Shown one piece after another: positions 26,009 through 45,730 of a stretch of DNA of 64,000 nucleotides. The stretch spans positions 506,459-570,458 of the forward strand of contig OX638324.1 of the NCBI GenBank assembly GCA_951812825.1. The letters run 5' to 3'. The notes beneath the pieces were generated by a model. It had not been told where the DNA came from and made no database searches. It was given only the letters and a program-made list of their open reading frames with translations. Numbering within the stretch: the first letter of the stretch is position 1; every line of letters starts with the position of its first letter. The position numbers were made by a program, and so were the translations under genes. Source of the stretch: an uncultured Dehalococcoidia bacterium. GTDB lineage: Bacteria > Chloroflexota > Dehalococcoidia > Lucifugimonadales > GCA-2712585.

Positions 26009-26053
26009 CCTGATGCTTGATGAAGATGAGAGAAGAAACGTCGACGTAGAGAA

Positions 26054-26981: not shown

Positions 26982-28778
26982 CTAACAGGTGGACGTGTGG
27001 TTGCCATCCTGCCGCGAACCTTCGTGGGCCGAAACCGGGTGGTACCTAATCCGGTATTCGCCAATCCGCATCTCGTAAGGCTCTAGAGTTACGGGCGTCT
27101 TCAGGGTAGGCGACTGCTCTTGGAGGGTCTTATGTAGCCACGTGATCGGATCGGAACCCACTGCAGATTCTTTGAACAGCCGAAGCACCTGAGGCCACAT
27201 GCCCCAAGCTGCTCGGGAGTCTCGGGAAGCCCCGCCGGAGAAGTGCGAAAAGTGCCGGCCAATGACGAACAAATGGATGATCTTGACGTCATCAGCTGGA
27301 ATTGTACCCTGGCCAAGCGGATGGTCAAGGGCGTGAGGGTGTTCAAGCAGAAACGTATTCACTGTAGAAATCCATCTATTAGTCTCGCTGAGAAAGTTCA
27401 TCATCTTTGAGTTTCGCTTTCTCATGGACGTGCCAAAGGTGTCTTGCCATTTCAACTGGAACAAACCTAGGGTTCCGTTCGCTCTGTCGAAAACGGCAGC
27501 ATCGATATCTGTCGCAATGTCGCCATCTCTCTTCAGTACCAGAGGTTTGGGAATCTTGGCAAACTTCTCGGTTGGGAACAGATCGTACAGCTCACTCCGA
27601 AAGCTATCTTCTCGCTCATCGACGGCGCGGTCCCAATCTTTGCGGTATCGCCTGTAGAGTTCGGCAAGCATGAAGTCAAATGGACTGCTCAGCGCCCCTG
27701 CGATTGAGAAGATCACGGAACTGGAGTTGATTTGGAGGAACGGAGCTATGTCGACGGCGGGATCAGATGTCTGGGCATGTACGCTGTCCGGCGTCGACTT
27801 CAGTGTGTTCAGCACCTGCTGAGCTTCAGTTTCGGTAATGAATAGGGCATCTGATAGGTAGCTCAGAAGTTTGGATTCACCAGTGGTCACGGTGAGTGTG
27901 TTGCGTACATCGAGATGTGGGTGTTTCAAGAGTAGAAGATTGGTGTATGTGAGGTGCTTGAGCACCCAGGCTATCGCCTCAACTACGGCTTCGCGGTACA
28001 GGGCAAATGGCAAACCTCCGAAGGTAGCTTCCGGGGCGAAGGCGTCCTGCCCAGACTCATAACGTGCGCGTGCCCACAGGAGTCCCTGACCTCGAAAGAA
28101 GTGGTCGATCTCGGGGTTCGTATCGTACTGAATATAGTGCTCATGCCAGGGCGATACTAAGGGTGACATCAACGCCTTTATGGTCGGCGCGATGACCTTG
28201 CTGTGTTCTCGTATTTGCTGATCCATCTCGGCGGTCAAGTCCCCGACAATGCGGAACTCATTGGCTTCGACGGCCTCAACACCTACCTCGCCGAGACTGA
28301 CCGTAGCATGTATGGCTCTTGGGCTTGGCATGGAGAGCTCCACCAAGCCATAGCGGTGAAGGTTCAGGAGCATATGGCACATGCCGAGTCTCCCACAGCC
28401 TGCGATTACGGAATCGGCCCATTGCTGATGGGCCTGCGTCGACCTCGTCAAGGAGGGACCTGGTGCGATGCTGGACCGGTCCGTAAAGAGTGAGATGGCT
28501 TTGCTCTGACCATACCTGAAGAGGTCCCATCTCTCACTCTGAATCTCTTCCTCTCGGTCTCTCTCGTCAAGTCCCAGGACATAAATGAAATAGTGGTCAA
28601 TTGCCCGAACCAATTCCAGAAGTCCCCATCGCCTCTCACCGGGCAGGCTAGCGAGAATGCGCTCCTCCTCTCTGCGCATGATGTCCGTCAGGATGTCTGA
28701 GGGCTTCGGATCCGTCACTCTCTCTCCTATGGGCGCGCGCTGGTCCACCGAGCGTGAAGTGTGCTTCACTCTTCCCAA
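26982..28778 (-). CDS. 598-aa defence-operon protein with possible nuclease core
   Basis: The last gene of the minus-strand defence operon, 20 bp after the HNH gene. No family is recognised for most of its length. Residues about 465-500 (DIATDIDAAVFD, then LGLFQLKWQD) give a D-x-D ... Q-x-K pattern like the active site of PD-(D/E)XK enzymes. The N-terminal 250 residues look helical. The start is uncertain: TTG 28778 is used, but GTG near 28715 after GGAGAG is also reasonable. Predicted role: a DNA-cutting or target-recognition subunit of the system; this is inference. Confidence 0.5.
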   Translation of the reverse strand: MGRVKHTSRSVDQRAPIGERVTDPKPSDILTDIMRREEERILASLPGERRWGLLELVRAIDHYFIYVLGLDERDREEEIQSERWDLFRYGQSKAISLFTDRSSIAPGPSLTRSTQAHQQWADSVIAGCGRLGMCHMLLNLHRYGLVELSMPSPRAIHATVSLGEVGVEAVEANEFRIVGDLTAEMDQQIREHSKVIAPTIKALMSPLVSPWHEHYIQYDTNPEIDHFFRGQGLLWARARYESGQDAFAPEATFGGLPFALYREAVVEAIAWVLKHLTYTNLLLLKHPHLDVRNTLTVTTGESKLLSYLSDALFITETEAQQVLNTLKSTPDSVHAQTSDPAVDIAPFLQINSSSVIFSIAGALSSPFDFMLAELYRRYRKDWDRAVDEREDSFRSELYDLFPTEKFAKIPKPLVLKRDGDIATDIDAAVFDRANGTLGLFQLKWQDTFGTSMRKRNSKMMNFLSETNRWISTVNTFLLEHPHALDHPLGQGTIPADDVKIIHLFVIGRHFSHFSGGASRDSRAAWGMWPQVLRLFKESAVGSDPITWLHKTLQEQSPTLKTPVTLEPYEMRIGEYRIRYHPVSAHEGSRQDGNHTSTC

Positions 28779-28798
28779 ATCACCTCAGCCGCTAGGTA

Positions 28799-29476
28799 TT
28801 ATCGGAATACCATTCGAACCCTGGGAACATCATCAACAGCGTAGCGATAGACTCCGCCTTGAACCTCGATCCAACCTCCGTGGCCAACCTCGCCAGTTTC
28901 GAGTAGGCGTAGCATCAATCTGCTGCCAACCTCTGGCCAGCCAACTAATCCCGTTGGATGTTCAAACTGACTCAGTTGCTGTGGGGAGAGCAGCTCACGA
29001 GGCAGAATGTTGATATGAGTCGGAGGCAACTCAACGGTTTGCCCGGGCTCAAACAGCAGGTGTCCACGTGCGTTTTTAACAATTACCGGTTCAATTCGTT
29101 CGAGCTCTGGAATCCATGTGACCACGGTATCCCCACTGGGGGTGGCTTCCACTCGGCGGGCAGCGTCTATTCGTCTGCGCAATCGTGGTTTGCGAGCCAG
29201 AGTTCGAGAAGCCGTTGGAAACAACAGCGGGTCTGGTTCGGTCGATCCGGAGATCACTGATGCGAGAAACGCAGCGAAATACTCCTCGTCCTTCGAGAAT
29301 CCAGAGTTGCATTCCTGGCACATTCCCACTTGCATCAGATTCTCCGGATAGGGGGCATTCAGAAGTGCCTTGCTTGGAATGTGATCCCGACTGTACCGTC
29401 CGCTGTGATGCGTCTCAGCGCACGGAATGCAGTCCATACTGGTGAGCTGATCACTAAAGTGATAGATCTGTTTCAT
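28799..29476 (-). CDS. HNH endonuclease-like protein
   Basis: A 225-aa protein. Residues 16-75 form an HNH/treble-clef unit: CIPC (17-20), SRDHIPSKAL with the catalytic His, then CQECNSGFSKDEEYFAAF with the second Cys pair and Asn. The C-terminal 130 residues are of unknown function. It lies 64 bp after the AIPR gene in the same orientation. In defence operons HNH proteins usually supply DNA cleavage. The ribosome site is weak. Confidence 0.7.
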   Translation of the reverse strand: MKQIYHFSDQLTSMDCIPCAETHHSGRYSRDHIPSKALLNAPYPENLMQVGMCQECNSGFSKDEEYFAAFLASVISGSTEPDPLLFPTASRTLARKPRLRRRIDAARRVEATPSGDTVVTWIPELERIEPVIVKNARGHLLFEPGQTVELPPTHINILPRELLSPQQLSQFEHPTGLVGWPEVGSRLMLRLLETGEVGHGGWIEVQGGVYRYAVDDVPRVRMVFR

Positions 29477-29540: not shown

Positions 29541-31613
29541 TCAGATCACTTCCGTCCCCAGCTGACACCCCTCCTCATGGAGGCGCTGGAGGATTTCAAT
29601 CGTTCGGACGCTTTGCTTTTCGGACGGGACCTTGTCCGGGATTGAGATCGCTACGTCCAATATCCCCTGGTCGGTCGCCGAAAGGAGCCCCTTGGACATT
29701 CCCCATGCCTTGACGTCATTCCAGAGGGCGGATCCAGCTTGGACCACGACCATCTGAGCCTCTATGCCGTTCAACATCCGTTGGTCCTTGACAGCAGCCC
29801 TCTTCTCCTCCCCCTTCTCGAATGAACTGACGAGTTCGGTGTCCAGGGCATCGGGCCATGAAACTTGAAGACCCATCACCCGATGCCAACAGGCCTGCTG
29901 CTTTGCCCATTCGGTCACATTTCGCATGCCATCCGGCGGATTGACTATCACGTCATGGACCGCCTTGGCACCGACCACCAGCGCGTCCCGGAGTCCGGGC
30001 GATATGTTCTGTGCTCGCCAGACCCTTTCGAAGTTGATAGAGCCGCCGCGCTGCGCCACATCATGGGCCAGCTTCGAGATGGCGTAGGCCACTACGTTTG
30101 CACGATAGCCCCCCTGATACCAAGGCTGCTCGGAAACAAGGCGCTCGACCGACCTGAACACAATTGCCTTTGCGACCGCCTCCCGGTAGTACATCTCATT
30201 GAAGTCGTTGGGGTGCCTGTTCCACTCTCCCCCGACGAACGAGGCGAAGTCGGCGAAGTTTTTCTGAGCACCCTTGCTCACGACATCCGGTTTGTCACGC
30301 CACACATTCAGGAATTTGGCGAGGTCTGTCTTGGTGAACATCTGCGGCTTCGGGTATTCGAGATCGAATTTCCTTCGTTCCGCCCGGGACAGGCGGCCCC
30401 TGGCATCCTGATACTGGCCACGTGCCCGCTCGTAGAACCACTTCGACTGACGGAATGTCCCATCCTTCGAGGGAGCGAAGAGCCTCCTTGAGAATCCTTC
30501 AATCCTGATATGGAACGGGTGATTCGAGAAGAAGTCAGCCGCACTGACGCGGTTCTGCGTGTTGGCGTACTCCGAAATCTTGGGGACAACCTCCGTTGCT
30601 CTATCGGAATTCACGATGGAGAGCTTCATCTGGACGAAGACCTTATCCAGATCCACCTCCTCGTTTCTCAGCGCCGCATGAATGGACGCAGTGGTCTGAC
30701 CGCCATTGACGATCTGGAAGTTGCGCATACCGGTCAGGAGCAGGCCGTTGGGAGACTCGTCTGTTTCGATGCTCTCCGCGGTGGCGGTGATGCCATTGTT
30801 GTAAGCGAAGAACATCTCTGGATTGTTCGTGATGGTATTCCTCAGACCTCGATTGACGTTGCCGCGTGCTTGGAGGAACACGCGGACGTTCTGCTCCAAG
30901 AGACGGGGGCCCCACCTGTCATAGATCATCGCCAGTTGGCGGCCGGGAAAGACGGCTAGGTACGACTCATAGTCGGCCTCCTGCATGTGTGCGGGCAGCA
31001 CCGGCAGCGGCGCACCGAACTCATTCAGCTCTACCATGTAGTCCTCACGCTCATGCCCTGACGTGGCGAAGCGGTGGAGGCGTCCCAGATCCCACACGCT
31101 GTAGGTGATGGGAATTCCTCGAAGTTCGCCCCCCTCCCTGCCATCCACCCTGGAGCTGAGTACCCTGTTGGTGACCAAGAACAGCCTCACCCTGGATATC
31201 GAGGACCACCGACTGGCGATGAGGTCGGCCAGGCCGAATACTGGGGCGGACTCCTCCAAACTGTTCCGATATGCCTCATCCAGCGACCGGTCGAGAAAGT
31301 TGAACAGCCGCTTGAAGGTCGCGTTCAGATTGGTTGCCGTGAGCGTTTCTACATCAAGTGACTGGTTGAAGTCGGTGATGATCAGGCTGAGTACGGCGTC
31401 GGAGTTGACCGGATCACCACCATAGCCGTCAACCCGAATGCCCCGGGGGGAGACGTAGTGAACCCGGTCCGCGGTCTCAATCTCGCCGGCGTCGGTAAGC
31501 GATTCCGAGAGCACGTCGAAGAAGGCGTCCTCCGCAAACCTGCCCTCGGCATCGGCGCGGCTGTGGATCTCCTGAAAGAGCTCCTCATGGTACTCAGCAA
31601 TGTCGATCGCCAT
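29541..31613 (-). CDS. AIPR-family abortive phage resistance protein
   Basis: A 690-aa protein. The AIPR core is clear around residues 240-360: NPEMFFAYNNGITATAESIE, FQIVNGGQTTASIHAALRNE and VFVQMKLSIVN. The family (abortive infection phage resistance) is a regular member of loci with Z1 helicases, MORC-like ATPases and PD-(D/E)XK proteins; its biochemical activity is not firmly established. The start lies 6 bp after the stop of the DUF4420 gene. Confidence 0.85.
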   Translation of the reverse strand: MAIDIAEYHEELFQEIHSRADAEGRFAEDAFFDVLSESLTDAGEIETADRVHYVSPRGIRVDGYGGDPVNSDAVLSLIITDFNQSLDVETLTATNLNATFKRLFNFLDRSLDEAYRNSLEESAPVFGLADLIASRWSSISRVRLFLVTNRVLSSRVDGREGGELRGIPITYSVWDLGRLHRFATSGHEREDYMVELNEFGAPLPVLPAHMQEADYESYLAVFPGRQLAMIYDRWGPRLLEQNVRVFLQARGNVNRGLRNTITNNPEMFFAYNNGITATAESIETDESPNGLLLTGMRNFQIVNGGQTTASIHAALRNEEVDLDKVFVQMKLSIVNSDRATEVVPKISEYANTQNRVSAADFFSNHPFHIRIEGFSRRLFAPSKDGTFRQSKWFYERARGQYQDARGRLSRAERRKFDLEYPKPQMFTKTDLAKFLNVWRDKPDVVSKGAQKNFADFASFVGGEWNRHPNDFNEMYYREAVAKAIVFRSVERLVSEQPWYQGGYRANVVAYAISKLAHDVAQRGGSINFERVWRAQNISPGLRDALVVGAKAVHDVIVNPPDGMRNVTEWAKQQACWHRVMGLQVSWPDALDTELVSSFEKGEEKRAAVKDQRMLNGIEAQMVVVQAGSALWNDVKAWGMSKGLLSATDQGILDVAISIPDKVPSEKQSVRTIEILQRLHEEGCQLGTEVI

Positions 31614-31619
31614 CCGAAC

Positions 31620-32609
31620 CTACCGTCCTGTCAGGGCTTCGTCCAAGGCATTGACCGAGGTCGAGAAGGGCTCACAGTCAGACAGAGAGACCGAGTAACG
31701 GACGTTAGAGACACCCGAACGGACCTCGCCTGAGGTAATGCGAGGGAATTCACCGGACACCCGGTAGATGCGGGTGGCCCCCTCCAACCAGAGGTGACCG
31801 GAGTAGTCGTCCTCCATCCTGTAGCCCGCCGCAGAGAGCCGCGTTTCGAGAATTCCAGTTGACCCGAGATCGACTGAGTGGAGATGTCCTCTAATCCGCT
31901 CGGCCACGTCGTGGAGGGTCACGCCTTGATTGCCTTCCATCGGAGCCTCATCCAGCTCCACCACATGCAGAAACAGCGAGTCGACTCCGCTCTCGTCCAG
32001 CTGGCTCTCCGACGTGATGGAGACTGATGGCGTTGCACCCCCGCGACGCGTCTTGGCCTCAATGGCGACTCGCGCAATCTCAAAGTCCTTGGGGGCGCCC
32101 AATGGACCTCGCCATGCCGTCACCGCGGATGCGGCATCCATGCGGGGCAGCAGCAGTCGCTCCAGAACGAATAATTCTCCGATGAGACCCTTCTGTTCCT
32201 CTGGGGATAGGAGGGTGCCTCGACCACCTCTCAACAGGTGGTGCCATCTCCATGTCCTCGACAGCGCGGCGGACACCGCCGCGGCTTCGGATTCCACCTG
32301 CGTGGCGGCGGAGATGATGTCCTGGCACAGGGTCTGAAAGATGTCACGCTGATTCGAGTCCAGTAGTTTGAAGGCGAGGAACTGCGTGCCTGAATCATCG
32401 GGCGGCGATAGGGTCACTTCAATGTCGCGCAGTTTGGGCAATTGAGCGGTCGGCGCCGAATCGGTGGCATGGCGCAGCGTTAGGAGAACCCCTCCGTCCA
32501 CGCCCCGGGCCCAGTAGAAATTCCAAGGCAGACTAGCGTCCACGCGACGAGCCGCGACCGAGTCGGCGATGCTGGGTGGATCAATCTCCTCCCAAGGATC
32601 CCTACCCAT
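31620..32609 (-). CDS. DUF4420 PD-(D/E)XK motif protein
   Basis: A 329-aa protein starting at ATG 32609, which overlaps the Z1 stop by 8 bp and has GGAGGG upstream; a longer frame upstream is a shadow of the Z1 gene. Residues about 150-185 carry the nuclease motif: GELFVLERLLL, then PKDFEIARVAIEAKTRRG (Asp and E-x-K). This is the DUF4420 family of predicted restriction endonucleases found next to Z1 helicases. Probably the main cutting subunit of the system. Confidence 0.8.
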   Translation of the reverse strand: MGRDPWEEIDPPSIADSVAARRVDASLPWNFYWARGVDGGVLLTLRHATDSAPTAQLPKLRDIEVTLSPPDDSGTQFLAFKLLDSNQRDIFQTLCQDIISAATQVESEAAAVSAALSRTWRWHHLLRGGRGTLLSPEEQKGLIGELFVLERLLLPRMDAASAVTAWRGPLGAPKDFEIARVAIEAKTRRGGATPSVSITSESQLDESGVDSLFLHVVELDEAPMEGNQGVTLHDVAERIRGHLHSVDLGSTGILETRLSAAGYRMEDDYSGHLWLEGATRIYRVSGEFPRITSGEVRSGVSNVRYSVSLSDCEPFSTSVNALDEALTGR

Positions 32610-35322
32610 CATCACCCTCCATCTCGTCCTCGTCGACATCATCGCCGAAGTTCTCCCGAAGCCACGTGGTGTTGACCACATACTCCACGCGGCGCTCCTC
32701 CCTATCCGTGCCCGGAAAGCTGATGCCCCATGCAGCCACCGGCTGATCTGGAGGTACATCCAGTCCATTGGACTGAACGTCAATCAGATGAATCATCAGG
32801 AGGGGCCTGGTTCGCTCTCTTCTGTATGCCCAGTCCGGGTACTGGACCTTACTGCCCTCTACCGATCTGCCATTCCTTTCCAACTCCTTCCGGTATGCCT
32901 CCTCCGCTGATGCCCGCTGCTCAGCGGTGAGGCCCGTTCTCTCTATCCCTCTGGTCGAGACCCGCTGTCGGTTGCTGACCAGGAGTGTCCTCGCATCGCT
33001 CCTCTTCCCGGATGTCCTTCGCTGACAGTTGATTACCCTTCCGAGCGAGTCGTCCCTAGTGTTGCCCTCACGCTCTCCCACAGCCGCAAAGAGGACGTCC
33101 CATTCCGAAAGCTCGTCGTCCTGACGTTCTTCAATGTATCGTCTGACAGGTCCCCCATCGGTTTTCAATGAGCCGGGGTGGTTTCGAAATTCCGTGAGGA
33201 AGTCCAGGATTGGAGCCACCGGAACGCCCCGGAGCAGGAAGCCAAACTCCACGCTCTCAGCAGCCTCTATGGGAAACCCACTCTGCCCTAGTCGACGGGC
33301 GAGCCTACGAGCAGCGTTCCGGTTGGTCTCCAGGCTCCCGTCGTCTCTGCGAAGCGCGTGCGTCTCGATCAGGCTGGATGCGAGACCGATGCTCACCACT
33401 ATGGGAGACCCGGATCCCATCTTGTTTCGCGCTGTGACGATGAGGGAATCGGGATGACTCCTGACCTTCAGACCAAACTCCTCGGGCGTCGCGTTGGATG
33501 CCTCCATGCTCCTGAGCTCACTCCGCAGCTCCTCTATGGAATCCGCAATGTGCTCGTACCACCCCTGAGCTGCATCCGGCATCCATATCCGGCACAGGTC
33601 CTGATATTCCGGCCGGTATCCGAACCATCGCCCCATCTGCATCAACGTGTCGTACATCATGGAGTTGCGGAGGAAATAGCTGACCATGAGTCCCTCGAGC
33701 GTCAGCCCACGTGACAGTGAGAAGCCACCGACCGCTATGACATTGAGACCGTCCTGCCGATTTCCGGTGTAGTCCAAAGTGCCAGGAGACTGGCTGTTCA
33801 CCTCGACCGCCCTGATGGGAGAGGCGGCCTCAAGTAGGCGACTCTGCACTTGGGCCCAATCGAATTCCGTGTCGTGGAACTCGCGTTCCCAGACCTCGTA
33901 AAGTGCTCCGATCTCCGGGTCGAGAAGCGCTGTCTCAGGGGGCAATGCTCCGTTCACCCTGATCGAGCGCTGTATGCCATCCAGCAGTCCGTGAATCTCA
34001 TTTCGCAGCTGGCGCTGCACGTTCATGAAGCGCGACGCGTTCACCAGCATTGAGCAATGCTGTCCCTCGTGTCCCCTGGCGAGTCGAATTGCTCGGCCCA
34101 AGATGAAGGTCCTCACGGCGTCCGCAAGAGATGGGGGAATGGAGGAGAGTACGATGCCGATTTCATGTCTGATGGGAAGGTGGTCCTCGTTGTCCTCGAT
34201 GTTGCGGATGTACTGCTCACCCTCCTCAAGGAAGACGGTGGTGGCTCCGAAGTAGTTCGATGGGGGATCAAGACTCACGATGAAGCTGCGGGGGAAGAGG
34301 TCCTCACCGCGCATCTGATCGTCGGTTTCGGGGTCGATGAAGATGTTGGCGAAGGGTGTGGCTGTGTATCCCACATAGCAACTTCTGTCAAACATGCGGA
34401 GGAGGTCACGAATCTGCCCATTGATTCTTGAGACCTCGCCCGCACCATGTCTGATGTTGATGGAGGCGTTGTCAGCCTCGTCGTCGATGAGCAGCATCGG
34501 TTCCTCAATGCTCTCACCGCCTCCCCGAGCACTGTGCTCCCTTAGCCACTCAAGCAGATTCTTCAGGGTGCTGCTGTTCTTCTTGATCACGAACACCGCG
34601 GGCTCAGTTAGGTTCTGGAGCGGTATCCCGACACCTGTAGCCGTCGTCTTATTGAAGTCCCGTATGGTGTTGGTGAATGTGACAGGGCGCCTCGTGTGGT
34701 CAAACCGACCAACGCCCACGTACATGTCGTCCTGCCTGCTCAGCAGCCGAGCACTGTCCCTACCGACGAATCCCTCGTCGATTCGGCGCTGCGTCTGGCT
34801 GCGCAGATTGTTGTGGACGCCCGCTATGACCACAATCAGCTTGTACCCCGCATCCGCGGCCTTGCAGATGAGACCCGTGTAGTTGGCCGTCTTGCCCGAC
34901 TGCACATGCCCGACAACCATCCCCCTTCTATCCCAGGGCCCATCTCTGAGAGGGTCCTGCATCAGACCGAGCACGCGATCGGTGACGTCATCCAATGTGG
35001 TTATCGAGGCGGTGGGGAGGCCCTCCTGAATCAGGTGTTGCCGATAGCGACTCCAGTAGTACGGGTCTATCCGTGACCTGGCGGCGTCCAACCAAGGCGT
35101 GTGGTCGCGTTCGATCAGAATGGAGCCGAGGGGTTGGATAATGCTGACACGCTCTTCGAGACGCTTAGCGAGGCTCTCCGCGTCATCGTCGGTGACACTT
35201 CCAAACATGGGCAACTGGCGGAGATTCCCGATCAGCTCGCGGACGTTCTCGGCGGTGGGCCCCTGCTGATTTGCGAGAGCGGCGGACACCATGCTCTCGA
35301 GATCCGATAACCGGTCATTCAT
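32602..35322 (-). CDS. Z1-domain helicase
   Basis: A 906-aa protein. GHVQSGKTANYTG (138-150) is Walker A, LLIDDEADNASIN (about 283) Walker B, YVGYTATPFANIF motif III-like, and FSLSRGLTLEGL with MQMGRWFGYR (about 570-605) the late helicase motifs. This order defines the Z1 superfamily, whose members couple ATP hydrolysis to DNA translocation in predicted restriction systems. Its start overlaps the ATPase end by 8 bp and its end overlaps the nuclease start, indicating co-translation and a stoichiometric complex. Confidence 0.9.
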   Translation of the reverse strand: MNDRLSDLESMVSAALANQQGPTAENVRELIGNLRQLPMFGSVTDDDAESLAKRLEERVSIIQPLGSILIERDHTPWLDAARSRIDPYYWSRYRQHLIQEGLPTASITTLDDVTDRVLGLMQDPLRDGPWDRRGMVVGHVQSGKTANYTGLICKAADAGYKLIVVIAGVHNNLRSQTQRRIDEGFVGRDSARLLSRQDDMYVGVGRFDHTRRPVTFTNTIRDFNKTTATGVGIPLQNLTEPAVFVIKKNSSTLKNLLEWLREHSARGGGESIEEPMLLIDDEADNASINIRHGAGEVSRINGQIRDLLRMFDRSCYVGYTATPFANIFIDPETDDQMRGEDLFPRSFIVSLDPPSNYFGATTVFLEEGEQYIRNIEDNEDHLPIRHEIGIVLSSIPPSLADAVRTFILGRAIRLARGHEGQHCSMLVNASRFMNVQRQLRNEIHGLLDGIQRSIRVNGALPPETALLDPEIGALYEVWEREFHDTEFDWAQVQSRLLEAASPIRAVEVNSQSPGTLDYTGNRQDGLNVIAVGGFSLSRGLTLEGLMVSYFLRNSMMYDTLMQMGRWFGYRPEYQDLCRIWMPDAAQGWYEHIADSIEELRSELRSMEASNATPEEFGLKVRSHPDSLIVTARNKMGSGSPIVVSIGLASSLIETHALRRDDGSLETNRNAARRLARRLGQSGFPIEAAESVEFGFLLRGVPVAPILDFLTEFRNHPGSLKTDGGPVRRYIEERQDDELSEWDVLFAAVGEREGNTRDDSLGRVINCQRRTSGKRSDARTLLVSNRQRVSTRGIERTGLTAEQRASAEEAYRKELERNGRSVEGSKVQYPDWAYRRERTRPLLMIHLIDVQSNGLDVPPDQPVAAWGISFPGTDREERRVEYVVNTTWLRENFGDDVDEDEMEGDDG

Positions 35323-36796
35323 GTTGCCACTTCCCGTTAAGGTCTTCTCTCAGAATCTGCTCCGTGCGCCCCCAATTCGAGCGGAAGGGCTCCGCAACTC
35401 TCATCATGGTGAGCACGTCCTCCACCGACTTCACCGTCCTGCTGAGATGAGCGAACGTCGTAACCGCCGCATAGCGCAGCGCCTGTTCCGAGGTGCCATC
35501 GCCGACCACAGAGGCGGAGTCACCGCCGAGGTCTGCGAACAGTGCATCCATGGGTAACGACGCCCCCGCGACCTCGATAACTCTGAGGAGGTCGCCCCGT
35601 GTTTCAGGGGGCAACCTGGACAGCAGATCGAGGACCATTGGATGCTCATCGTTGATTCGATAGGAGATCTGATTCTTGTTCTGAATCCTGCTCCAAACCG
35701 GAATTCGATTCTCCTCGATGAGCTTGCGTCCCCTATTTCTATACACCCTCTTTGACGCTGCTCCGAGCGGCTCGATGATTCGACGAAGGCGGTCTCGAAC
35801 CGGGGGTGGCAACTGCGCAGATGCCTTCTTCACGTCAATCCTCCAGGCTCCATCAAGGGAGTTCGGCATATCTATGCGGACGCGCGCCAGCTTTGTGAGC
35901 TCGGCTTGGCGTGCCAGGCCAAACCAGGTGCCATGAATGATCAACCGCTGCTCCCTGTAGACGTAGAAGCCCTGGTTTCTTAGATAGCCCTCCGGTCCTG
36001 CGTAGCGTTCCCATTGCGCCGGCGTGACCTTGCCGTGATGCGGAAGGGTGAACGCCTGCACCAGAATGTCCTCATTCTCGACCCTGATCAGCTCTTCGGG
36101 ACCCGCGATCGTCGCCGGATGTCTGGAGTGAAATGGGTCAAAGGGTTCAAGAGGCCGATTATTCATCTCAATGCTGACCCTGCGGCGTCCGGGTTCACCG
36201 GAGAGGAATCGATGGAATACCAACTCCAGGTGGGACCGAGCCTCATCCAACCGACGCACGAAGTCGGGCACATTCCATGCCGAATCTCCGCCGTCCGTCC
36301 CGAGACCTAGTTGCTCCCAGACCACGAGTGTCCCGCTCGAACCGATATATTCTGTCCAAGGGATGGATGTTAGGTCGTCAAGGATCTGGACTTGCCACCT
36401 GCCCGATTCGGCGATGTGATCCAGATTCCAACGAGCACAGGTGGTCGTCCCATTGGTACGGCTCACCACCGTGAGCACTCGACATTGGGAGAATGAAGCT
36501 GTCTTCAGGCCGAGACCAAACCTGCCAAGGTCGGATTTCGCCCTCTCCTCAAGGGGACTTCGGCTTCCGAGGCGCATCGCCTCCAGAAGTTCTTCCTCGG
36601 TCAGCCCCACCCCGTCATCCAGAATGCCGACCTTGGGCTCAGTCGTTTCCAGACTAGCAATTATCTGAATTGTCTCCGCCTGTGCCGCTATGCAGTTGTC
36701 TACCAGATCGGCAAGGGCCGTGCTAAGTGAATATCCGATTGCACGAATGCTCTCAATGAGCGGGGAGGGCTTGGGAGGTATCTCAATGATGCGCAC
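35315..36796 (-). CDS. MORC/MutL-like GHKL ATPase
   Basis: A 493-aa protein starting GTG 36796, directly after the stop of the methyltransferase gene. The Bergerat fold is clear: ALADLVDNCIAA (N-box, Asn34), ILDDGVGL (about 58-65) and GRFGLGLKTASFS (91-103). The rest resembles the S5-like transducer domain of MutL/MORC proteins. Prokaryotic MORC-like ATPases have been described in restriction loci with Z1 helicases. They are thought to form ATP-dependent clamps on DNA, controlling cleavage. Confidence 0.85.
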   Translation of the reverse strand: MRIIEIPPKPSPLIESIRAIGYSLSTALADLVDNCIAAQAETIQIIASLETTEPKVGILDDGVGLTEEELLEAMRLGSRSPLEERAKSDLGRFGLGLKTASFSQCRVLTVVSRTNGTTTCARWNLDHIAESGRWQVQILDDLTSIPWTEYIGSSGTLVVWEQLGLGTDGGDSAWNVPDFVRRLDEARSHLELVFHRFLSGEPGRRRVSIEMNNRPLEPFDPFHSRHPATIAGPEELIRVENEDILVQAFTLPHHGKVTPAQWERYAGPEGYLRNQGFYVYREQRLIIHGTWFGLARQAELTKLARVRIDMPNSLDGAWRIDVKKASAQLPPPVRDRLRRIIEPLGAASKRVYRNRGRKLIEENRIPVWSRIQNKNQISYRINDEHPMVLDLLSRLPPETRGDLLRVIEVAGASLPMDALFADLGGDSASVVGDGTSEQALRYAAVTTFAHLSRTVKSVEDVLTMMRVAEPFRSNWGRTEQILREDLNGKWQHE

Positions 36797-38716
36797 CTAA
36801 CTCACCCCTATTCCCGTGGCGCAGGAGGGTCGAACGGGGCACGCATCGCACTTGGGAGCGCGGGCCGTGCAGACCAACGCGCCCAGATCAAGCAGGGCCT
36901 GGTTCCATCCGATGTCCGTTCCGCCGGGTCCGGCCAACTCGTGCAGGGCAAGTCTGAGCCGCCAATTCGGTAGGTCGGAATCTCCCAGCAGACGCCGAGA
37001 AATTCTCACAGTGTTTGTGTCCATCAGGACACTGGGGCGACCGAACGCGAAGCATAGAACGGCGGAGGCTATGTAGTCTCCAACCCCTGGTATGGCAGTG
37101 AGCTCCTGCCAGTTGTCGGGGACCTCTCCGGCGAGCTGGTCAATCACAAATTCCGCCGCAGATACAAGGTTGGCGGAGCGCCAGTGAAGGCCGAGTGAGG
37201 CCAGCCGCGGTGCCAGCTTCTTGGAGTTGCTCAGAAATAAAGCTGGTGTTTCACCCAGGCTGAGAAGTTCGTCCGCAATCCGGGCCACCTGCTCAGCTTT
37301 CGTGCGGTGCAGGCACATTTCCAGCAGGAGAACCTGCCATGGGTTCAGATCCGGGCGCCTCCACGGGAAGGAGCGTTTGTTGTTCCCGAACCACCTGGCC
37401 AATTGGCCTCGGAAGTTGTCCGTGCTCTGGGGGTGGCTGCCATTGGTTGCAGCAGCAGCGGCCCCATCCTCAATTGCACCCCTTACGGAGGAGGCAATCG
37501 CCGCGGCGAGCAGAGGTGGTACGGCGTTGCCTATCTGCTGGTACCTGTTGGATGGGTGACCGGCGAACCGGAACCTATCTGGAAATGTCTGAATTCTGGC
37601 CGCCTCCCGTATTGAGAGAGTGCGGTCCTCCCTCGGGTGGATGTACCAGTAGCCGTCCTTGGCGATATGGGCGGTGATGGTCCTCGACAGATCTTCGAAT
37701 GACAATCTCACATACTTGTCGCTGAAGATGTCGGACCGGTACCTCCTCAGGTGTTCCGGCACGTCCATGTACGTGTCTCCAGGGTCCATCAACTTGTAGA
37801 TTTCCGCATCATCCGGCCGGACCGACCGTGTCACATGATCTCGAATTAGCAGGGCTTCCGACCCTCTCAGGCCCTTCCTGAGCAACCTCGCAAGAACTGA
37901 CCTCGGGGGTCCCTCATAGACCTGCGTTTCATCTCGAACGTCCGCCTGTGCCACGGGAAGGTCCCGAATGGCCTGTCCAACAGTGGGTCGGCTGCCAATG
38001 GGCTTGGGCCACTCGAATCTGCCATTCCCTGCAATCCCAATCACAAATAACCGGGACCTGTGCTGCGGAACACGGTACCGCCACGCCTCCAGCACCTCCA
38101 CATGCACACCGTACCCCCGACTCTCCAATTCGTTCACCAATGCAATCAACGGCGCGCCGCCCTGTGCTTGGGCAAAGTTCGGAACGTTTTCGAAGAGCAT
38201 TGCTCGCGGGTTCAATCGGTCAACGATGGCGAAGAAACTACGCCAGAGGTCAGCCCTTGCGTCTTGAGGGCGCCGGTCCCCCATCCTCACCAAGTTGCCG
38301 ATCTTCGACATGCCCGCGGTGGAGAAGGGCTGGCATGGAGGACCACCTGCAAGGAGATCTACATCCTCTATTCCCCAATCGTCCAACTGGCGAATGAAGA
38401 CACTGGGGTCGGAAAGGTCGCCCGTCCACGTGAGACCCTCGATGTTTGCCGCGTGCGTCTGCGTAGCAACGTGATCAGAATCCGCAGCCGCCACCACTGA
38501 GAACCCGCCGTCCTCAAGCCCCAAGCTCAACCCGCCGGCACCGCAGAACAGGTCTATCGCCCAAGGGCGTGGCCTGCTTTCCAACCAAGCATGAACACGG
38601 TCTCTGTCGCTCGGATCAGGGGAATCGCTGTGAGGATCGAGTTGAATCCTCGGCCCCCGCCGGTGGGTAACTCGGTACCGTGAAGTGGATTTGGTCCCTT
38701 CGATGCTATCGTTCAT
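36797..38716 (-). CDS. C5-cytosine methyltransferase fused to MIG-like T/G mismatch glycosylase
   Basis: A 639-aa two-domain protein. Residues 50-420 are a complete C5 methyltransferase: DLFCGAGGLSLG (motif I), GGPPCQPFS with catalytic Cys128, ENV (176-178), QHRSR (218-222) and IGNAVPP (395-401). Residues 435-635 are an HhH-GPD glycosylase: FPWRRP, LLEMCLHRTKAEQV, IPGVGDYIASAV (542-553) with the hairpin, Asp566 in LMDTNTVR, and a 4Fe-4S loop Cys616-x6-Cys623-x2-Cys626-x5-Cys632. The residue after GVGD is Tyr548; that position is Lys in Nth, Ser in MutY and Tyr in the thymine glycosylase MIG. So the domain should remove T from T/G mismatches formed by 5mC deamination. Confidence 0.88.
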   Translation of the reverse strand: MNDSIEGTKSTSRYRVTHRRGPRIQLDPHSDSPDPSDRDRVHAWLESRPRPWAIDLFCGAGGLSLGLEDGGFSVVAAADSDHVATQTHAANIEGLTWTGDLSDPSVFIRQLDDWGIEDVDLLAGGPPCQPFSTAGMSKIGNLVRMGDRRPQDARADLWRSFFAIVDRLNPRAMLFENVPNFAQAQGGAPLIALVNELESRGYGVHVEVLEAWRYRVPQHRSRLFVIGIAGNGRFEWPKPIGSRPTVGQAIRDLPVAQADVRDETQVYEGPPRSVLARLLRKGLRGSEALLIRDHVTRSVRPDDAEIYKLMDPGDTYMDVPEHLRRYRSDIFSDKYVRLSFEDLSRTITAHIAKDGYWYIHPREDRTLSIREAARIQTFPDRFRFAGHPSNRYQQIGNAVPPLLAAAIASSVRGAIEDGAAAAATNGSHPQSTDNFRGQLARWFGNNKRSFPWRRPDLNPWQVLLLEMCLHRTKAEQVARIADELLSLGETPALFLSNSKKLAPRLASLGLHWRSANLVSAAEFVIDQLAGEVPDNWQELTAIPGVGDYIASAVLCFAFGRPSVLMDTNTVRISRRLLGDSDLPNWRLRLALHELAGPGGTDIGWNQALLDLGALVCTARAPKCDACPVRPSCATGIGVS

Positions 38717-38847: not shown

Positions 38848-39045
38848 TCACAACAGCTTCTTCACCCTTCCGCGGCTCCCGTCGTAGGTGTTGGCGAAGA
38901 CCCGCAGCCGATCCCGCTCCATGATCCACTTGTTGCCGAACTTGGTAGCGGTGAGCTTGCCCTCCCGGATCAGGCGCTTCACCGTCTCGGGGTGAACGTC
39001 CAGAATCTTGGAGGCCTCGATGACGTCGATGTAATTCTCAAACAT
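38848..39045 (-). CDS. Excisionase-like (HTH_17) DNA-binding protein
   Basis: A 65-aa winged-helix protein: IDVIEASKILDVHPETVKRL, then a wing (TATKFGNKWIMERDRLRVFA). This is the excisionase/MerR-like HTH_17 fold. It is transcribed away from the HEPN-like gene and toward the defence operon, 130 bp upstream of the methyltransferase start. It could regulate the operon, autoregulate with the HEPN-like gene, or be a leftover excision factor of the island. Confidence 0.75.
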   Translation of the reverse strand: MFENYIDVIEASKILDVHPETVKRLIREGKLTATKFGNKWIMERDRLRVFANTYDGSRGRVKKLL

Positions 39046-41607: not shown

Positions 41608-43104
41608 CAGCGATAATGGGACAGTTGGAGGAGGAGAAAAGTCGATAGAATAAGGTTTGGGGAAGCTCCGTTGGATGGGTTAGATTACTCATACGGAGGA
41701 GCGGATATGTCCCAGAGAGGAACGACCAAGGGCCAGGTGGCGGAGGAGCGCACAAAGGAGACCAGGTCCTTTGTCAGACGGGTAAAGACAATAACCCGGC
41801 GGAAGTACACGGCAGAGGAGAAGATCCGGATAGTATTGGAGGGGTTCAGAAGGGAGGTGACGGTGAATGAGTCGTGTCGCAGGGAGGGAATCAAGCCCCA
41901 TTCCTACTACGCATGGACAAAGGAGTTCAAGGAGGCAGGGAAGGAGAGGCTGTCCCGGGACAGTGTGAGGGATGCGACGCAGCGAGAGGTGGAGGTATTG
42001 AAGCAGTTGGTTGGTGAGCTGTACCTTGAGGCCCAGCGGTTAAAAAAACAGCGATTCCCAACTTGAACGCCGCCGGTACCAGAGGATGAGCGCTGTAGAG
42101 AAGATGTTAGTTATCGACAAGGTGGCCTCGTCTGAACTACCGAAGCGGCAGGTGCTTAGCCAGTTGGGAGTGCCGAGGAGCACCTACTACCGGTGGCTGA
42201 AACGAATGGATGACGAGGGCTTGGAGGACCAGGTGGGAGGAGGAAGACCTCCGTGGAACAGACTCACACCGGAGGAAGTGGACCGTGTGCTTGAGGCAGC
42301 TCGGAATATGCCGGAGTTGAGTTATCGCCAGTTGGCGGTGTGGATTACCGACTACGGGGGTTTCTCCGTATCGGAGTCCACGGTGTACCGCATTCTTCTA
42401 AGAGAAGGTCTGGTGAAGAGAGCTGAGGTGAAGCTAGTCGCGGGAAAGGAATATCATCGCAAGACCACAGCCCCTCACCGGATGTGGGCCACTGATGCCT
42501 CATACTTCAGGGTATCGGGCTGGGGCTTCTACTACATGGTCACCGTCATGGATGACTACTCTCGATTCATCCTCGCCCACAGACTTCAGAGAGACATAAC
42601 CTCCCACTCTCTCATAGGGGTGGTACAGGATGCCGTGGATAGAACGGACATGGACCAGGTCCCAGTCACTGACGGGACCCGCCTGCTCAGCGATAACGGG
42701 CCGGGCTACGTATCCAGGGCCTTCAGGGACTATCTTCACATGGTGGGCATAAAACACATCTTCGCCAGTCCCTTCCACCCCCAGACCAATGGGAAGTTGG
42801 AGCGTTACCATCAGACCCTGAAGAAGGACGTGAACCAGTTTCCCTACGATATGCCCTCGGATTTGGAGACAGCCATCGTCGCCTTCGTCAGCTACTACAA
42901 CCATCGGCGCTACCACAAAGCCTTGGGCAACGTCACACCGTCGGATGTACTCAGAGGCCGGCGAAACACAATCCTACGACGCCGAAAGGAGATTCACTCG
43001 GAAACTATCCAACGGAGGAGGAGATACAACCAGTCTCTGAGGGAGTTGACCGAGCCTCGAATTCACATTCGATTTCTCGGCTTCCATCTGTCCCACTTTT
43101 GCTG
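41608..43104 (+). mobile_element. IS3-like insertion sequence
   Basis: Two overlapping-phase transposase genes lie between candidate terminal inverted repeats: 41608-41624 and the reverse complement of 43088-43104 share 14 of 17 bases with a GGGACAG core. The second gene runs a little past the right repeat, so the boundary is approximate. Confidence 0.6.
41707..42066 (+). CDS. IS3-family transposase OrfA
   Basis: A 119-aa HTH protein (KYTAEEKIRIVLEGFRREVT, NESCRREGIKPHSYYAWTKE) with a C-terminal leucine-zipper-like part (REVEVLKQLVGELYLEAQRL). A run of seven A at about 42042-42048 is a likely slippery site. However, OrfB lies in the +1 phase relative to OrfA, not the -1 phase normal for IS3 frameshifting, so either OrfB has its own start or an indel has occurred. 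Confidence 0.75.
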   Translation: MSQRGTTKGQVAEERTKETRSFVRRVKTITRRKYTAEEKIRIVLEGFRREVTVNESCRREGIKPHSYYAWTKEFKEAGKERLSRDSVRDATQREVEVLKQLVGELYLEAQRLKKQRFPT

Positions 43105-43147
43105 GTTGCCAACACGCCCAGATACATCAACACAGTCACTGCGATAA
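42086..43147 (+). CDS. IS3-family transposase OrfB (DDE)
   Basis: A 353-aa integrase-fold transposase. HRMWATDASYFRV (first Asp), RLLSDNGPGYVS (second Asp) and HPQTNGKLERYHQTLKKDV (Glu) form the DDE triad. The N-terminus has an HTH (SQLGVPRSTYYRWLKRM). Catalytic residues are intact; the end may be altered because it passes the right terminal repeat. Confidence 0.85.
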   Translation: MSAVEKMLVIDKVASSELPKRQVLSQLGVPRSTYYRWLKRMDDEGLEDQVGGGRPPWNRLTPEEVDRVLEAARNMPELSYRQLAVWITDYGGFSVSESTVYRILLREGLVKRAEVKLVAGKEYHRKTTAPHRMWATDASYFRVSGWGFYYMVTVMDDYSRFILAHRLQRDITSHSLIGVVQDAVDRTDMDQVPVTDGTRLLSDNGPGYVSRAFRDYLHMVGIKHIFASPFHPQTNGKLERYHQTLKKDVNQFPYDMPSDLETAIVAFVSYYNHRRYHKALGNVTPSDVLRGRRNTILRRRKEIHSETIQRRRRYNQSLRELTEPRIHIRFLGFHLSHFCWLPTRPDTSTQSLR

Positions 43148-43243
43148 TAGATGCCGGGCCGCCCACGTCCGACTCCATTCAGTACTGGCTCCAGCAATGC
43201 CTTAGGCACGGCAAGCAGTGACCTGATAGGAGCATGGCCCTAG

Positions 43244-44080
43244 GAGGGTGTCTAAAAAGCGTTGAAGGGTGCCAATCGTTGTAGAATGAGGCCAGTCATG
43301 GCGGCGTAGCCCCACGCTTCCGTAGTCTGGCGCAATTCCTCATAGTCCTTGCTCAGCCGGCGAAACCGGACCAACCAGGCAGAGGTGGGTTCTACAACCC
43401 AACGGCGTGGAAGCATCTCAAAGGTGTGTTGATGGGATTAGACGCCGAACCAGTTCCAAGTCCCCTTCACATATGTTTCGCGCCCACTCCACCAGCTTGC
43501 CTGCGTAGGGCCCATCAGCCCATATCCGCTTCAACCGGGGAAACCAGCCTACCAAACCCATCAGCACCAACTTAGCCCCGCCTCGATCCTGAATATTGGC
43601 CGGATGCACCACCACTATCAACAGCAATCCTGTGGTGCCTACTACTATGTGTCGCTTTCTTCCACTCACCTTCTTACCAGCATCATAGCCACGAGGCCCC
43701 CTTTTTCCGTGGTCTTCACCAATTGGCTGTCTATGATGGCCCCGCTGGAACTGGCAGCTCGTCCCTCAGCCGTGCGCAACCGGTCACGCAGCCCTTCATG
43801 TATCCGCTCCAGGGTCCCATCTCGACGCCATGTGCGAAAGTAGTGGAATTTGATGCGCCACGGGGGGCAGGTCGTGAGGGAGCATCCGCCATGCGCACCC
43901 GGTGCGCAGCACATATCGAATGGCGTTCACCACCTCCCAGCGATAGTACTTGATAGGCCTGCCTGCTCTTTTGGGAGGAGGCAGCAACGGTTCCAGCAGT
44001 TCCCATTCTTTGTCCCTCAGTCGCTCAGGTCGCTTGGATATCTCTCTCTGCTCATGGAACACCGCTTTAGGCACTCCCAT
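43244..44080 (-). pseudogene. IS5 (IS427-like) transposase remnant with two frameshifts
   Basis: Read leftward from ATG 44080, three frames make one transposase: KEWELLEPLLPPPKRAGRPI ... LRTGCAWRMLPHDLPP; then FHYFRTWRRDGTLERIHEGL ... AIIDSQLVKTTEKGG (Asp of the DDE triad); then GRKRHIVVGTTGLLLIVVVH and LKRIWADGPYAGKL (second Asp). Breaks occur near 43860 and 43670. GAGGGTGTCTAAAAAGCG at 43244 looks like the element end. The opposite end seems lost where the IS21 element begins. Confidence 0.75.
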
Positions 44081-44233
44081 GCCTGCACTCCAACTACTAC
44101 TAGGCACAGTTTGAGAAGGGCGGAGAGAAAATGTACCAAGGGGGCGGCTTGATCGTCTGATTGTGGCGGTCGAAAACTGTACCACCTCCCACCTTCCGAT
44201 AGAGTCGAAGCAGACTCGAAGGAGGGTGACAGG

Positions 44234-45730
44234 ATGTATGTGGTGGATCTGTATTTTCGTGTGCGGAAGGCTTGTCTGGTGGAAGGGATGAGCATGAGGG
44301 AAGCATCCCGGATGTTTGGAATTCACAGGGACACTGTGCGGAAGATGCTCTCCAACCCAACGCCACCCGGATACCGAAGGCAGCGCCCTGCCCGGCGTCC
44401 CAAGCTTGAGCTCTTCACCGGCATCATAGACCGGGTCCTTGAAGAGGACCTGAGCCTTCCCAGGAAGCAGCGTCACACGGTCAAGCGCATCTTCGAGCGG
44501 CTGAGAGAAGAACACGGCTTCGATGGCGGCTACACCATAGTCAAGGACTATGTGCGCAAGAGCAGGAGGCAGGGGCGAGAGATGTTCGTTCCCCTGGCCC
44601 ATCCTACCGGACACGCGCAGTGCGACTTCGGACAGGCGTGGGCAGTCATAGGGGGCGAGAGGCGCAGGGCCCACTACTTTGTGATGTCCCTTCCGCACAG
44701 TGACGGAATCTTCGTGAAGGCGTATCCGGCGGAGACTACGGAGGCGTTCTGTGATGGCCACGTATCCGCGTTCGCCTACCTGGGCGGGGTTCCGCAGAGC
44801 ATCCTGTACGACAACACGAAGCTGGCGGTGGCCAGGATACGGGGAGATGGACGCCGCAAGAGAACGAGGGTGTTCACGGAGCTTCAGTCCCACTACCTGT
44901 TCAGCGACAGGTTCGGCCGACCCGGCAAGGCCACAGACAAGGGGAATGTGGAGGGGATGGTGGGATACGTGAGGCGCAACTTCCTGGTGCCTGTGCCGAA
45001 GTTCGACAGCTTCAACGCGCTCAATGCCTACCTGGAGTCAAGATGTTTTGGCAGGAAGGAGGCGAAGCTGAGGGGGCACAGGGAGAGCATAGGAGAGCGA
45101 ATGGAGCGAGACCTCGGCGCATTACTGCCCTTGCCCTCGGTTCCCTACGACCCGTGCGACAGGCACGCCACCCGGGTGAGTTCCCTGTCCCTGGTCCGAT
45201 ACCGGGCCGACTACTCGGTGCCGGTGGCCTACGGACACAGGGACGTGCTGGTCAGGGGCTATGTGGAGGAGGTGGTGATCAGTTGCGGTTCTGAGGTGAT
45301 AGCCCGCCACAGGCGGTCCTACGAACGGGGGAACTTCGTCTTCGATCCCATCCACTATCTGCCACTTCTGGAGAAGAAGATAGCAGCCCTGGACCAGGCG
45401 GCGCCCCTGGCCGGGTGGAAGCTACCGGGAGAGTTCGACACCCTTCGCAGGCTGCTTGAGTACCGCATGGGCAGACGTGGAAAGAGGGAGTTCGTTCAGG
45501 TGTTGAGGTTGTTGGAGACCTTCTCACGGGAGGATGTGCATATGGCCGTGCGCGATGCCGTCAGGATGGGAGCGGCCGGCTTCGACGCTGTCAAGCATCT
45601 TGTGCTGTGCAACATCGAGGAACGGCCACCCAGGCTGGACCTCGACCTGTATCCCCACCTGCCCAGGGTGTGTGTGAGCACCACGTCGGCGGGAGACTAT
45701 ATGAAGCTGCTGAATGGGAGGACATCGTGA
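44234..45730 (+). CDS. istA: IS21-family transposase IstA
   Basis: A 498-aa transposase. N-terminal HTH (SMREASRMFGIHRDTVRKML). The DDE core has GHAQCDFGQAWAV (Asp), SILYDNTKLAVARI (Asp) and GNVEGMVGYVRRN (Glu). A C-terminal beta-barrel follows. The stop overlaps the GTG of the istB gene, the usual IS21 arrangement. Apparently intact. Confidence 0.9.
   Translation: MYVVDLYFRVRKACLVEGMSMREASRMFGIHRDTVRKMLSNPTPPGYRRQRPARRPKLELFTGIIDRVLEEDLSLPRKQRHTVKRIFERLREEHGFDGGYTIVKDYVRKSRRQGREMFVPLAHPTGHAQCDFGQAWAVIGGERRRAHYFVMSLPHSDGIFVKAYPAETTEAFCDGHVSAFAYLGGVPQSILYDNTKLAVARIRGDGRRKRTRVFTELQSHYLFSDRFGRPGKATDKGNVEGMVGYVRRNFLVPVPKFDSFNALNAYLESRCFGRKEAKLRGHRESIGERMERDLGALLPLPSVPYDPCDRHATRVSSLSLVRYRADYSVPVAYGHRDVLVRGYVEEVVISCGSEVIARHRRSYERGNFVFDPIHYLPLLEKKIAALDQAAPLAGWKLPGEFDTLRRLLEYRMGRRGKREFVQVLRLLETFSREDVHMAVRDAVRMGAAGFDAVKHLVLCNIEERPPRLDLDLYPHLPRVCVSTTSAGDYMKLLNGRTS

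What the first reader, a model, noticed from the sequence alone, without database searches (positions are those of the whole stretch)
36797..38716. C5-cytosine methyltransferase fused to a MIG-type T/G mismatch glycosylase
Seen: one open frame joins a complete C5 methyltransferase to an HhH-GPD domain with a 4Fe-4S loop, Asp566 and Tyr548 in the hairpin. Known: 5mC deaminates to T; the archaeal glycosylase MIG, encoded beside a C5 methyltransferase, repairs T/G, and Tyr instead of Lys or Ser at this position marks MIG. Inference: this protein methylates and also repairs the damage its own product causes, a one-chain counterpart of the Dcm/Vsr pairing, here inside a restriction locus.
Basis: partly seen in the sequence, partly recalled or inferred. 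Interest (0 to 1): 0.82.

Follow-up and report, generated by a model that had tools for sequence, protein, structure and literature searches.

The report
Cytosine methyltransferase carrying its repair enzyme
A bacterial antiviral-defence gene makes one protein that both puts methyl marks on cytosine and appears able to start repair of the T:G mismatches those marks decay into; related proteins in other bacteria keep the repair domain but have lost its catalytic residues.

Summary
Real, but on the minus strand. Window 38716-36797 encodes one 639-aa protein: a complete C5-cytosine methyltransferase (MTase, residues 54-410), a short linker and an HhH-GPD glycosylase with a 4Fe-4S loop (435-633). 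Six further Chloroflexota copies show the same fusion, so it is not a frameshift. The gene heads a defence operon of MZA/paraMORC type (GHKL ATPase, Z1, DUF4420, AIPR); sister fusions sit in DISARM and in GHKL/response-regulator loci. Phylogeny, DNA-wedge residues (Arg471, Leu510), Ala474 and the missing C-terminal domain place the glycosylase with MIG-like enzymes, outside MutY. One pocket residue, Gln606, is MutY-like in all seven fused copies, so T/G specificity is likely but unproven. Vsr is absent from all 29 loci with an intact MIG-like domain and present in 5 of 13 loci where the fused domain is dead (uncorrected for ancestry; not significant within the fused clade). The unexpected result: fused relatives outside Chloroflexota (Actinomycetota, a cyanobacterial plasmid, two IMG/VR contigs) have lost the catalytic Asp and Tyr, while 12 of 13 keep all four Fe-S cysteines.

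The parts
36797..38716 (-). Fused gene, 639 aa: C5-cytosine methyltransferase + MIG-like HhH-GPD glycosylase (P0001)
   Evidence: Single open frame; same architecture in six other Chloroflexota genomes
37487..38557 (-). C5 methyltransferase domain, residues 54-410, all catalytic motifs present
   Evidence: PF00145 E 1.1e-56; Cys128, ENV, QxRxR residues conserved
37415..37486 (-). Linker, residues 411-434, variable between relatives
   Evidence: Alignment A4; no ATG/GTG start in it
36818..37414 (-). HhH-GPD glycosylase domain, residues 435-633, no MutY C-terminal domain
   Evidence: TIGR01084 E 8.6e-34; 1KEA E 5.2e-29; model pLDDT 94.3, top Foldseek match 1KEA
37019..37132 (-). Helix-hairpin-helix and catalytic loop, residues 529-566, with Tyr548 and Asp566
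   Evidence: PF00633 at residues 529-556; residue table
36821..36871 (-). 4Fe-4S loop C-x6-C-x2-C-x5-C, residues 616-632
   Evidence: PF10576 E 0.0024; four Cys invariant in the active fused copies compared
35315..36796 (-). GHKL/MutL-type (paraMORC) ATPase, MzaB-like; starts directly after the fusion's stop codon
   Evidence: PF13589 E 4.1e-33; MzaB PADLOC E 3e-74; gap 0 nt
32602..35322 (-). Z1-domain helicase/ATPase, MzaC-like
   Evidence: PF10593 E 9e-80; MzaC E 3.5e-151
31620..32783 (-). DUF4420 PD-(D/E)XK nuclease, MzaD-like (the listed TTG start overlaps the previous gene by 182 nt and is probably too early)
   Evidence: PF14390 E 3.7e-68; MzaD
29541..31613 (-). AIPR protein, MzaE-like
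   Evidence: PF10592 E 5.9e-101; MzaE
26982..29476 (-). Two further co-directional genes: weak HNH_5 protein (28799-29476) and a 598-aa protein without a family (26982-28778); possible end of the operon
   Evidence: gaps 64 and 20 nt; a 47%-identical HNH-like gene follows AIPR in L023 too
38848..39045 (-). 65-aa HTH_17 protein upstream of the fusion, possible regulator
   Evidence: PF12728 E 1.6e-9

Best explanation
The gene encodes the self-marking methyltransferase of a paraMORC/MZA-like defence system. Its N-terminal domain methylates cytosine at C5 in the host's recognition sites so that the GHKL-Z1-DUF4420-AIPR machinery spares host DNA. The tethered MIG-like HhH-GPD domain is a monofunctional glycosylase (no catalytic Lys) that most likely excises T, and probably U, opposite G, the mismatch left when 5-methylcytosine deaminates. 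It leaves an abasic site for ordinary base-excision repair, so one chain does the work that Dcm plus Vsr, or a MTase plus separate MIG, do elsewhere. Shown: fusion, intact catalytic residues in both domains, MIG-like phylogeny, operon, and absence of Vsr in the genome. Inferred: activity, T/G preference, action at the protein's own sites, and protection of the host by its methylation.
For: Intact active sites in all active fused copies under purifying selection (one usable pair: dN/dS 0.15 for the glycosylase and 0.08 for the MTase between window and L023). The MIG-like side excludes MutY (99/99; 100/100). 17/20 MIG-like domains are fused to or near a C5 MTase against 0/43 MutY (Fisher 1e-12, uncorrected for ancestry). 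MutY wedge residues Gln48 and Tyr88 are Arg471 and Leu510, Val45 is Ala474, and there is no C-terminal domain. No Vsr in the own genome. Among 36 C5 MTases of the order, 18 have Vsr nearby, 4 a MIG-like domain, none both. Vsr in 0/29 loci with an intact MIG-like domain against 5/13 with a dead one (Fisher p 0.0015, uncorrected). L207, the sister MTase in an MZA-like locus, is not fused but has a separate MIG-like gene of the same lineage.
Against: Gln606 equals MutY Gln182, not Mig Leu187, in all seven fused copies. The genome has no MutY, so an A/G role is conceivable. 13/13 fused homologues found outside Chloroflexota have a dead domain, 8 of them without a Vsr in the locus, so compensation is not strict. 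Restricted to the fused clade, the Vsr contrast is not significant (5/13 vs 0/8, p 0.11), and a tree-corrected test had too few independent pairs. The MIG and MutY folds are structurally tied. No biochemical data.
Confidence: 0.62

Rival explanations
1. The domain is a MutY-type adenine glycosylase (A opposite G or 8-oxoG) that happens to be fused to a MTase and stands in for the missing MutY of this genome.
For: NCBIfam's best label is MutY; Gln606 is MutY-like; the genome has no other MutY.
Against: Falls outside the MutY clade; lacks the C-terminal 8-oxoG-reading domain and both wedge residues that MutY inserts into DNA; same-order genomes that do have MutY carry it as a separate 300-aa gene without a MTase.
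Confidence: 0.13
2. The HhH-GPD/4Fe-4S domain is mainly a non-catalytic module (DNA reader, target-site or partner-binding platform) of this MTase family; catalysis is a retained or secondary trait of the Chloroflexota branch.
For: 13 fused homologues elsewhere lost Asp, Tyr and usually the hairpin, while 12/13 keep all four Cys and 13/13 the Arg after the catalytic Asp in the alignments, in the same three kinds of defence locus as the intact copies.
Against: All active-site residues are invariant in the Chloroflexota copies at 53-78% domain identity; the separate MIG-like gene beside the sister MTase L207 suggests that the activity itself is selected in this lineage.
Confidence: 0.17
3. The domain attacks foreign DNA: a base-excision restriction or anti-modified-base activity in the defence system.
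For: Base-excision restriction exists (PMC10273834); the locus is a defence operon.
Against: It shares a chain with the enzyme that marks self DNA; its closest relatives are mismatch glycosylases beside many different R-M types; the locus already carries a PD-(D/E)XK nuclease; the model is an HhH-GPD fold like MutY and Mig.
Confidence: 0.06

Closest known systems
Mig.Mth, T/G mismatch glycosylase of Methanothermobacter plasmid pFV1 (1KEA)
   Same: Same HhH-GPD 4Fe-4S fold without C-terminal domain; Glu, Tyr, Asp, Asn; Arg and Leu wedge positions; Ala50/Ala474; encoded in an R-M locus with a C5 MTase
   Different: Separate gene in pFV1; Leu187 is Gln606 here; about 30% identity; activity of the window protein unknown
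Dcm/Vsr and C5 MTase-Vsr pairs of R-M systems
   Same: A C5 MTase with a dedicated enzyme for deaminated 5mC; Vsr is the usual partner in the same order (18 of 36 MTases) and in paraMORC loci (PMC2292703, PMC8011034)
   Different: Vsr is a nicking endonuclease of a different fold; here a glycosylase domain on the same chain takes its place
MZA system (MzaABCDE) and paraMORC restriction-modification operons
   Same: GHKL ATPase, Z1 protein, DUF4420 nuclease and AIPR protein in this order; C5 methylases, Vsr-family genes and AIPR are reported in such loci (PMC2292703)
   Different: No MzaA homologue in the locus; all four proteins score below NCBIfam cut-offs; the MTase carries a glycosylase
DISARM and Druantia C5 methyltransferases (DrmMII, DruM)
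   Same: Fused copies L027, L014 and L103 serve DISARM operons; separate C5 MTase + MIG-like pairs lie in DISARM (L105-L107) and Druantia (L013/L058, L069)
   Different: No glycosylase partner is mentioned in the recent YprA-helicase survey searched here
MutY adenine glycosylase
   Same: Fold, catalytic Glu/Asp/Tyr/Asn, 4Fe-4S loop, Gln606
   Different: Outside the MutY clade; no C-terminal domain; wedge residues and Val45 replaced

Membership tests
MIG-like mismatch glycosylases | Groups with Mig and outside MutY in a tree of the domain | tested here: met
   MutY side 43 rows 99/99, 10 rows 100/100; fused domains monophyletic; exact sister among MIG-like enzymes unresolved
MIG-like mismatch glycosylases | No MutY-type C-terminal domain | tested here: met
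   4 residues after the domain; MutY homologues 30-189
MIG-like mismatch glycosylases | Catalytic Asp, Tyr, Glu and 4Fe-4S Cys | tested here: met
   All present, but shared with MutY, so not discriminating
MIG-like mismatch glycosylases | Mig pocket residue Ala50 | tested here: met
   Ala474; 23/27 MIG-like, 1/43 MutY
Mig.Mth itself (narrow sense) | Mig pocket residue Leu187 (seen in 10/27 of the MIG-like group, so a Mig.Mth trait rather than a group trait) | tested here: not met
   Gln606 in all seven fused copies
MIG-like mismatch glycosylases | T/G or U/G excision | not testable with these tools
   Needs an assay
MutY | Position inside the MutY clade | tested here: not met
MutY | Wedge residues Gln48 and Tyr88 (Gs numbering) | tested here: not met
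   Arg471, Leu510; MutY set 43/43 Gln and 42/42 Tyr
MutY | C-terminal 8-oxoG recognition domain | tested here: not met
   Protein ends just after the 4Fe-4S loop
C5-cytosine DNA methyltransferase | Full PF00145 with PCQ Cys, ENV, QxRxR and GNxV motifs | tested here: met
   E 1.1e-56; residues checked
MZA defence system | MzaB-MzaE homologues in order | tested here: met
   PADLOC E 5e-22 to 3.5e-151, all below NCBIfam curated cut-offs
MZA defence system | MzaA in the locus | tested here: not met
   The model hits only a gene 1.7 Mb away and rings in 10 of 14 control genomes; hence 'MZA-like'
paraMORC R-M operons (Iyer 2008) | GHKL ATPase + helicase + restriction-fold nuclease + DNA methylase | tested here: met
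   description in PMC2292703
Dcm/Vsr pairing | Vsr endonuclease beside the MTase | tested here: not met
   No Vsr in window or genome; works like it, is not one

The most novel reading that the evidence does not exclude
The C-terminal 4Fe-4S HhH-GPD domain is a general reader or scaffold module of a C5 MTase family shared by MZA-like, DISARM and paraMORC-kinase defence systems. It arose by fusion of a MIG-type repair glycosylase, still works as an enzyme in Chloroflexota, and elsewhere has been converted into a catalytically dead Fe-S module in defence, with repair sometimes handed to Vsr.
Probability: 0.4. Interest if true: 0.75.

Novelty: new variant of a known kind. Interest (0 to 1): 0.67.

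Why it matters
5-methylcytosine is mutagenic, and how cells with C5 restriction-modification systems pay that cost is usually answered with Vsr or, in a few archaea, MIG. Here the repair enzyme is welded to the methylating enzyme and travels with it between at least three kinds of multigene defence system, and MIG-like partners prove more widespread than the archaeal example suggests. The living/dead pair of the same fusion is a natural experiment: it lets one ask whether tethered repair is needed, whether Vsr substitutes, and what a dead glycosylase with conserved Fe-S cysteines does in phage defence.

Tried and rejected
Tyr548 as a MIG marker: rejected. Fold comparison to separate MIG from MutY: not possible, Z 24.0 against 25.7 with rmsd about 2.2, though Foldseek ranks 1KEA first. 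Full-length AlphaFold model with five sequences: poor (pLDDT 44), so nothing is said about domain arrangement. Frameshift/artefact: rejected by six further fused copies. Viral-contig scan with the glycosylase alone found nothing; no phage record covers 80% of the fusion. Mantel test of MTase/glycosylase co-inheritance: strong over all pairs (r 0.83) but gone with one row per cluster (r 0.14, p 0.22), so only recent co-inheritance is claimed. Tree-corrected Vsr test: too few independent pairs. dN/dS saturated for most pairs. Paper searches for a described C5 MTase-HhH-GPD fusion found none in the open library; absence there is weak evidence. The genome-contig scan used two short peptide patterns, so fusions elsewhere are undersampled.

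Full report
Observation. PF00145 covers residues 54-410 (E 1.1e-56). Residues 435-633 match TIGR01084 (E 8.6e-34), and the best solved structure is 1KEA, the thymine glycosylase Mig, narrowly ahead of MutY (5.2e-29 against 2.5e-27). A model of the domain from 45 sequences has pLDDT 94.3. Foldseek puts 1KEA first, but VIA-align cannot separate Mig from MutY. GC by codon position does not change across the junction, and there is no in-frame ATG or GTG between residues 405 and 466.

Not an artefact. A scan of 84,980 species genomes plus searches among relatives found the same fusion in L023, L024, L026, L027 (also held as L015), L103 (639-644 aa) and, lacking the first part of the MTase, L014. 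All are Chloroflexota. Domain identities to the window are 70-85% for the MTase and 57-78% for the glycosylase (five full-length copies).

Neighbourhood. Directly downstream and co-directional lie a GHKL/MutL-type ATPase (gap 0), a Z1 protein, a DUF4420 PD-(D/E)XK nuclease and an AIPR protein, matching MzaB-E of the MZA system in PADLOC and NCBIfam, below NCBIfam cut-offs. MzaA is not in the locus. This fits the paraMORC restriction-modification operons of Iyer et al. 2008, who report C5 methylases, Vsr-family genes and AIPR in such loci (PMC2292703). L023 has the same operon at 80-91% identity. The other fused copies serve different systems: L027, L014 and L103 DISARM (drmA, drmB); L024 and L026 a double-GHKL ATPase with a response-regulator protein, like the elements of PMC8011034. 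The fused enzyme therefore occurs in at least three kinds of defence locus.

MIG-like or MutY? In a 65-row tree the fused domains are monophyletic (100/100) and lie on the side of Mig and other short glycosylases; 43 MutY rows, E. coli MutY included, form the other side (99/99). A second tree repeats this (100/100). The residue test is sharper. MutY inserts Gln48 and Tyr88 into DNA (PMC12871665): these are Gln in 43/43 and Tyr in 42/42 MutY rows, but Arg471 and Leu510 here. E. coli Val45 is Ala474 here, as in Mig. MutY proteins have 30-189 further residues after the domain; the window protein has 4.

A caution on specificity. All seven fused copies have Gln606 at the position of E. coli MutY Gln182 and Mig Leu187. 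Changing Ala50 and Leu187 of Mig to Val and Gln moved it from T/G to A/G, while the reverse single changes in MutY gave T/G binding without excision (PMC2714593). The fused domains thus have one residue of each type. T/G is the likelier substrate; sequence alone does not settle it.

What the family keeps company with. 17 of 20 MIG-like domains are fused to or near a C5 MTase, 0 of 43 MutY domains are (Fisher 1e-12, not corrected for ancestry). The pairs span pFV1, Caldicellulosiruptor, haloarchaea, Thermus, Druantia loci, DISARM and an MZA-like locus (L104-L107). The usual partner of C5 MTases is Vsr. Among 36 C5 MTases in 60 relatives, 18 have Vsr nearby, 4 have a MIG-like domain, none has both (chance of no overlap 0.05). 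The window's genome has one C5 MTase, no Vsr and no MutY.

The unexpected part. Fused homologues of 36-41% identity exist outside Chloroflexota: five of 396 Actinomycetota genomes, further ones in a second sample, a Synechococcus plasmid and two IMG/VR contigs. All 13 examined have lost the catalytic Asp and Tyr and usually the hairpin, yet 12 keep all four Fe-S cysteines (L212 appears broken by a frameshift) and all keep the MTase Cys and the Arg after the catalytic Asp. They sit in the same three kinds of locus. In the MTase tree, built with nine of them, these and the active fusions form one clade (100/99) whose sister is a set of DISARM MTases with separate, intact MIG-like genes. The simplest history is gene pair, then fusion, then loss of catalysis in some branches; two separate fusions cannot be excluded. 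L207, sister to the active fusions and in an MZA-like locus, has a separate glycosylase of the same lineage upstream.

Vsr as an independent witness. With a Vsr profile built here, 0 of 29 loci with an intact MIG-like domain have Vsr, against 5 of 13 loci with the dead domain (Fisher 0.0015, 0.0018 after removing near-duplicates). PF03852 confirms the four that lie in whole genomes. This fits the view that intact domain and Vsr do the same job. Limits: 8 dead-domain loci have no Vsr within the stretch examined; within the fused clade alone p is 0.11; a tree-aware test had too few independent pairs; and these Vsr proteins keep Asp51 and His69 but have Asp and Cys at His64 and His71.

Conclusion. 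The window encodes a MTase with a tethered, apparently intact MIG-like glycosylase, most likely for T/G (or U/G) mismatches at its own sites, as the marking enzyme of an MZA-like defence operon. The idea of pairing a C5 MTase with dedicated repair is known; welding both into one chain, its occurrence in several defence systems, and its catalytically dead sister form were not found described in the open papers searched. Activity and specificity remain to be measured.

Noticed in passing
L192-L197, L110, L111, L190, L210-L213: Fused C5 MTases whose C-terminal HhH-GPD domain has lost Asp/Tyr and mostly the hairpin but (12 of 13) keeps four Fe-S cysteines; a dead glycosylase retained in defence loci.
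   Followed up: partly
L207 6715-8974: MTase sister to the active fusions but unfused, with a MIG-like glycosylase gene of the same lineage directly upstream, in an MZA-like locus 58-69% identical to the window's.
   Followed up: partly
G012:C84 2159-3310 and G045:C1 1984186-1985850: C5 MTase and Vsr matches appear to share one open frame (487 and 593 aa), a possible Vsr counterpart of the fusion.
   Followed up: no
window 24980-26899: DUF6602 protein followed by an oligonucleotide-cyclase/anti-phage nucleotidyltransferase homologue (NF053871, below cut-off): a second defence module beside the operon.
   Followed up: no
window 26982-29476: Weak HNH_5 protein and a 598-aa protein without any family, co-directional after AIPR; L023 also has an HNH-like gene there.
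   Followed up: no
window 41671-45730: Transposase-type genes (rve integrase cores, Mu-type C-terminal domain) flank the defence operon on its upstream side, suggesting a mobile region.
   Followed up: no
L014 6601-8658: Fused copy lacking about the first 270 residues of the MTase, with an HNH-type gene on the opposite strand in its place, in a DISARM locus: a damaged copy with an intact glycosylase part.
   Followed up: no
L202, L204, L205, L206, L111: Vsr-family proteins beside dead-domain fusions have Asp and Cys where E. coli Vsr has His64 and His71 (VDGCFWHGC), a variant active site.
   Followed up: partly
G000:C1 2290958-2291665: The PADLOC MzaA model matches a gene far from the locus and rings in 10 of 14 control genomes, so it is not specific for MZA loci.
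   Followed up: no
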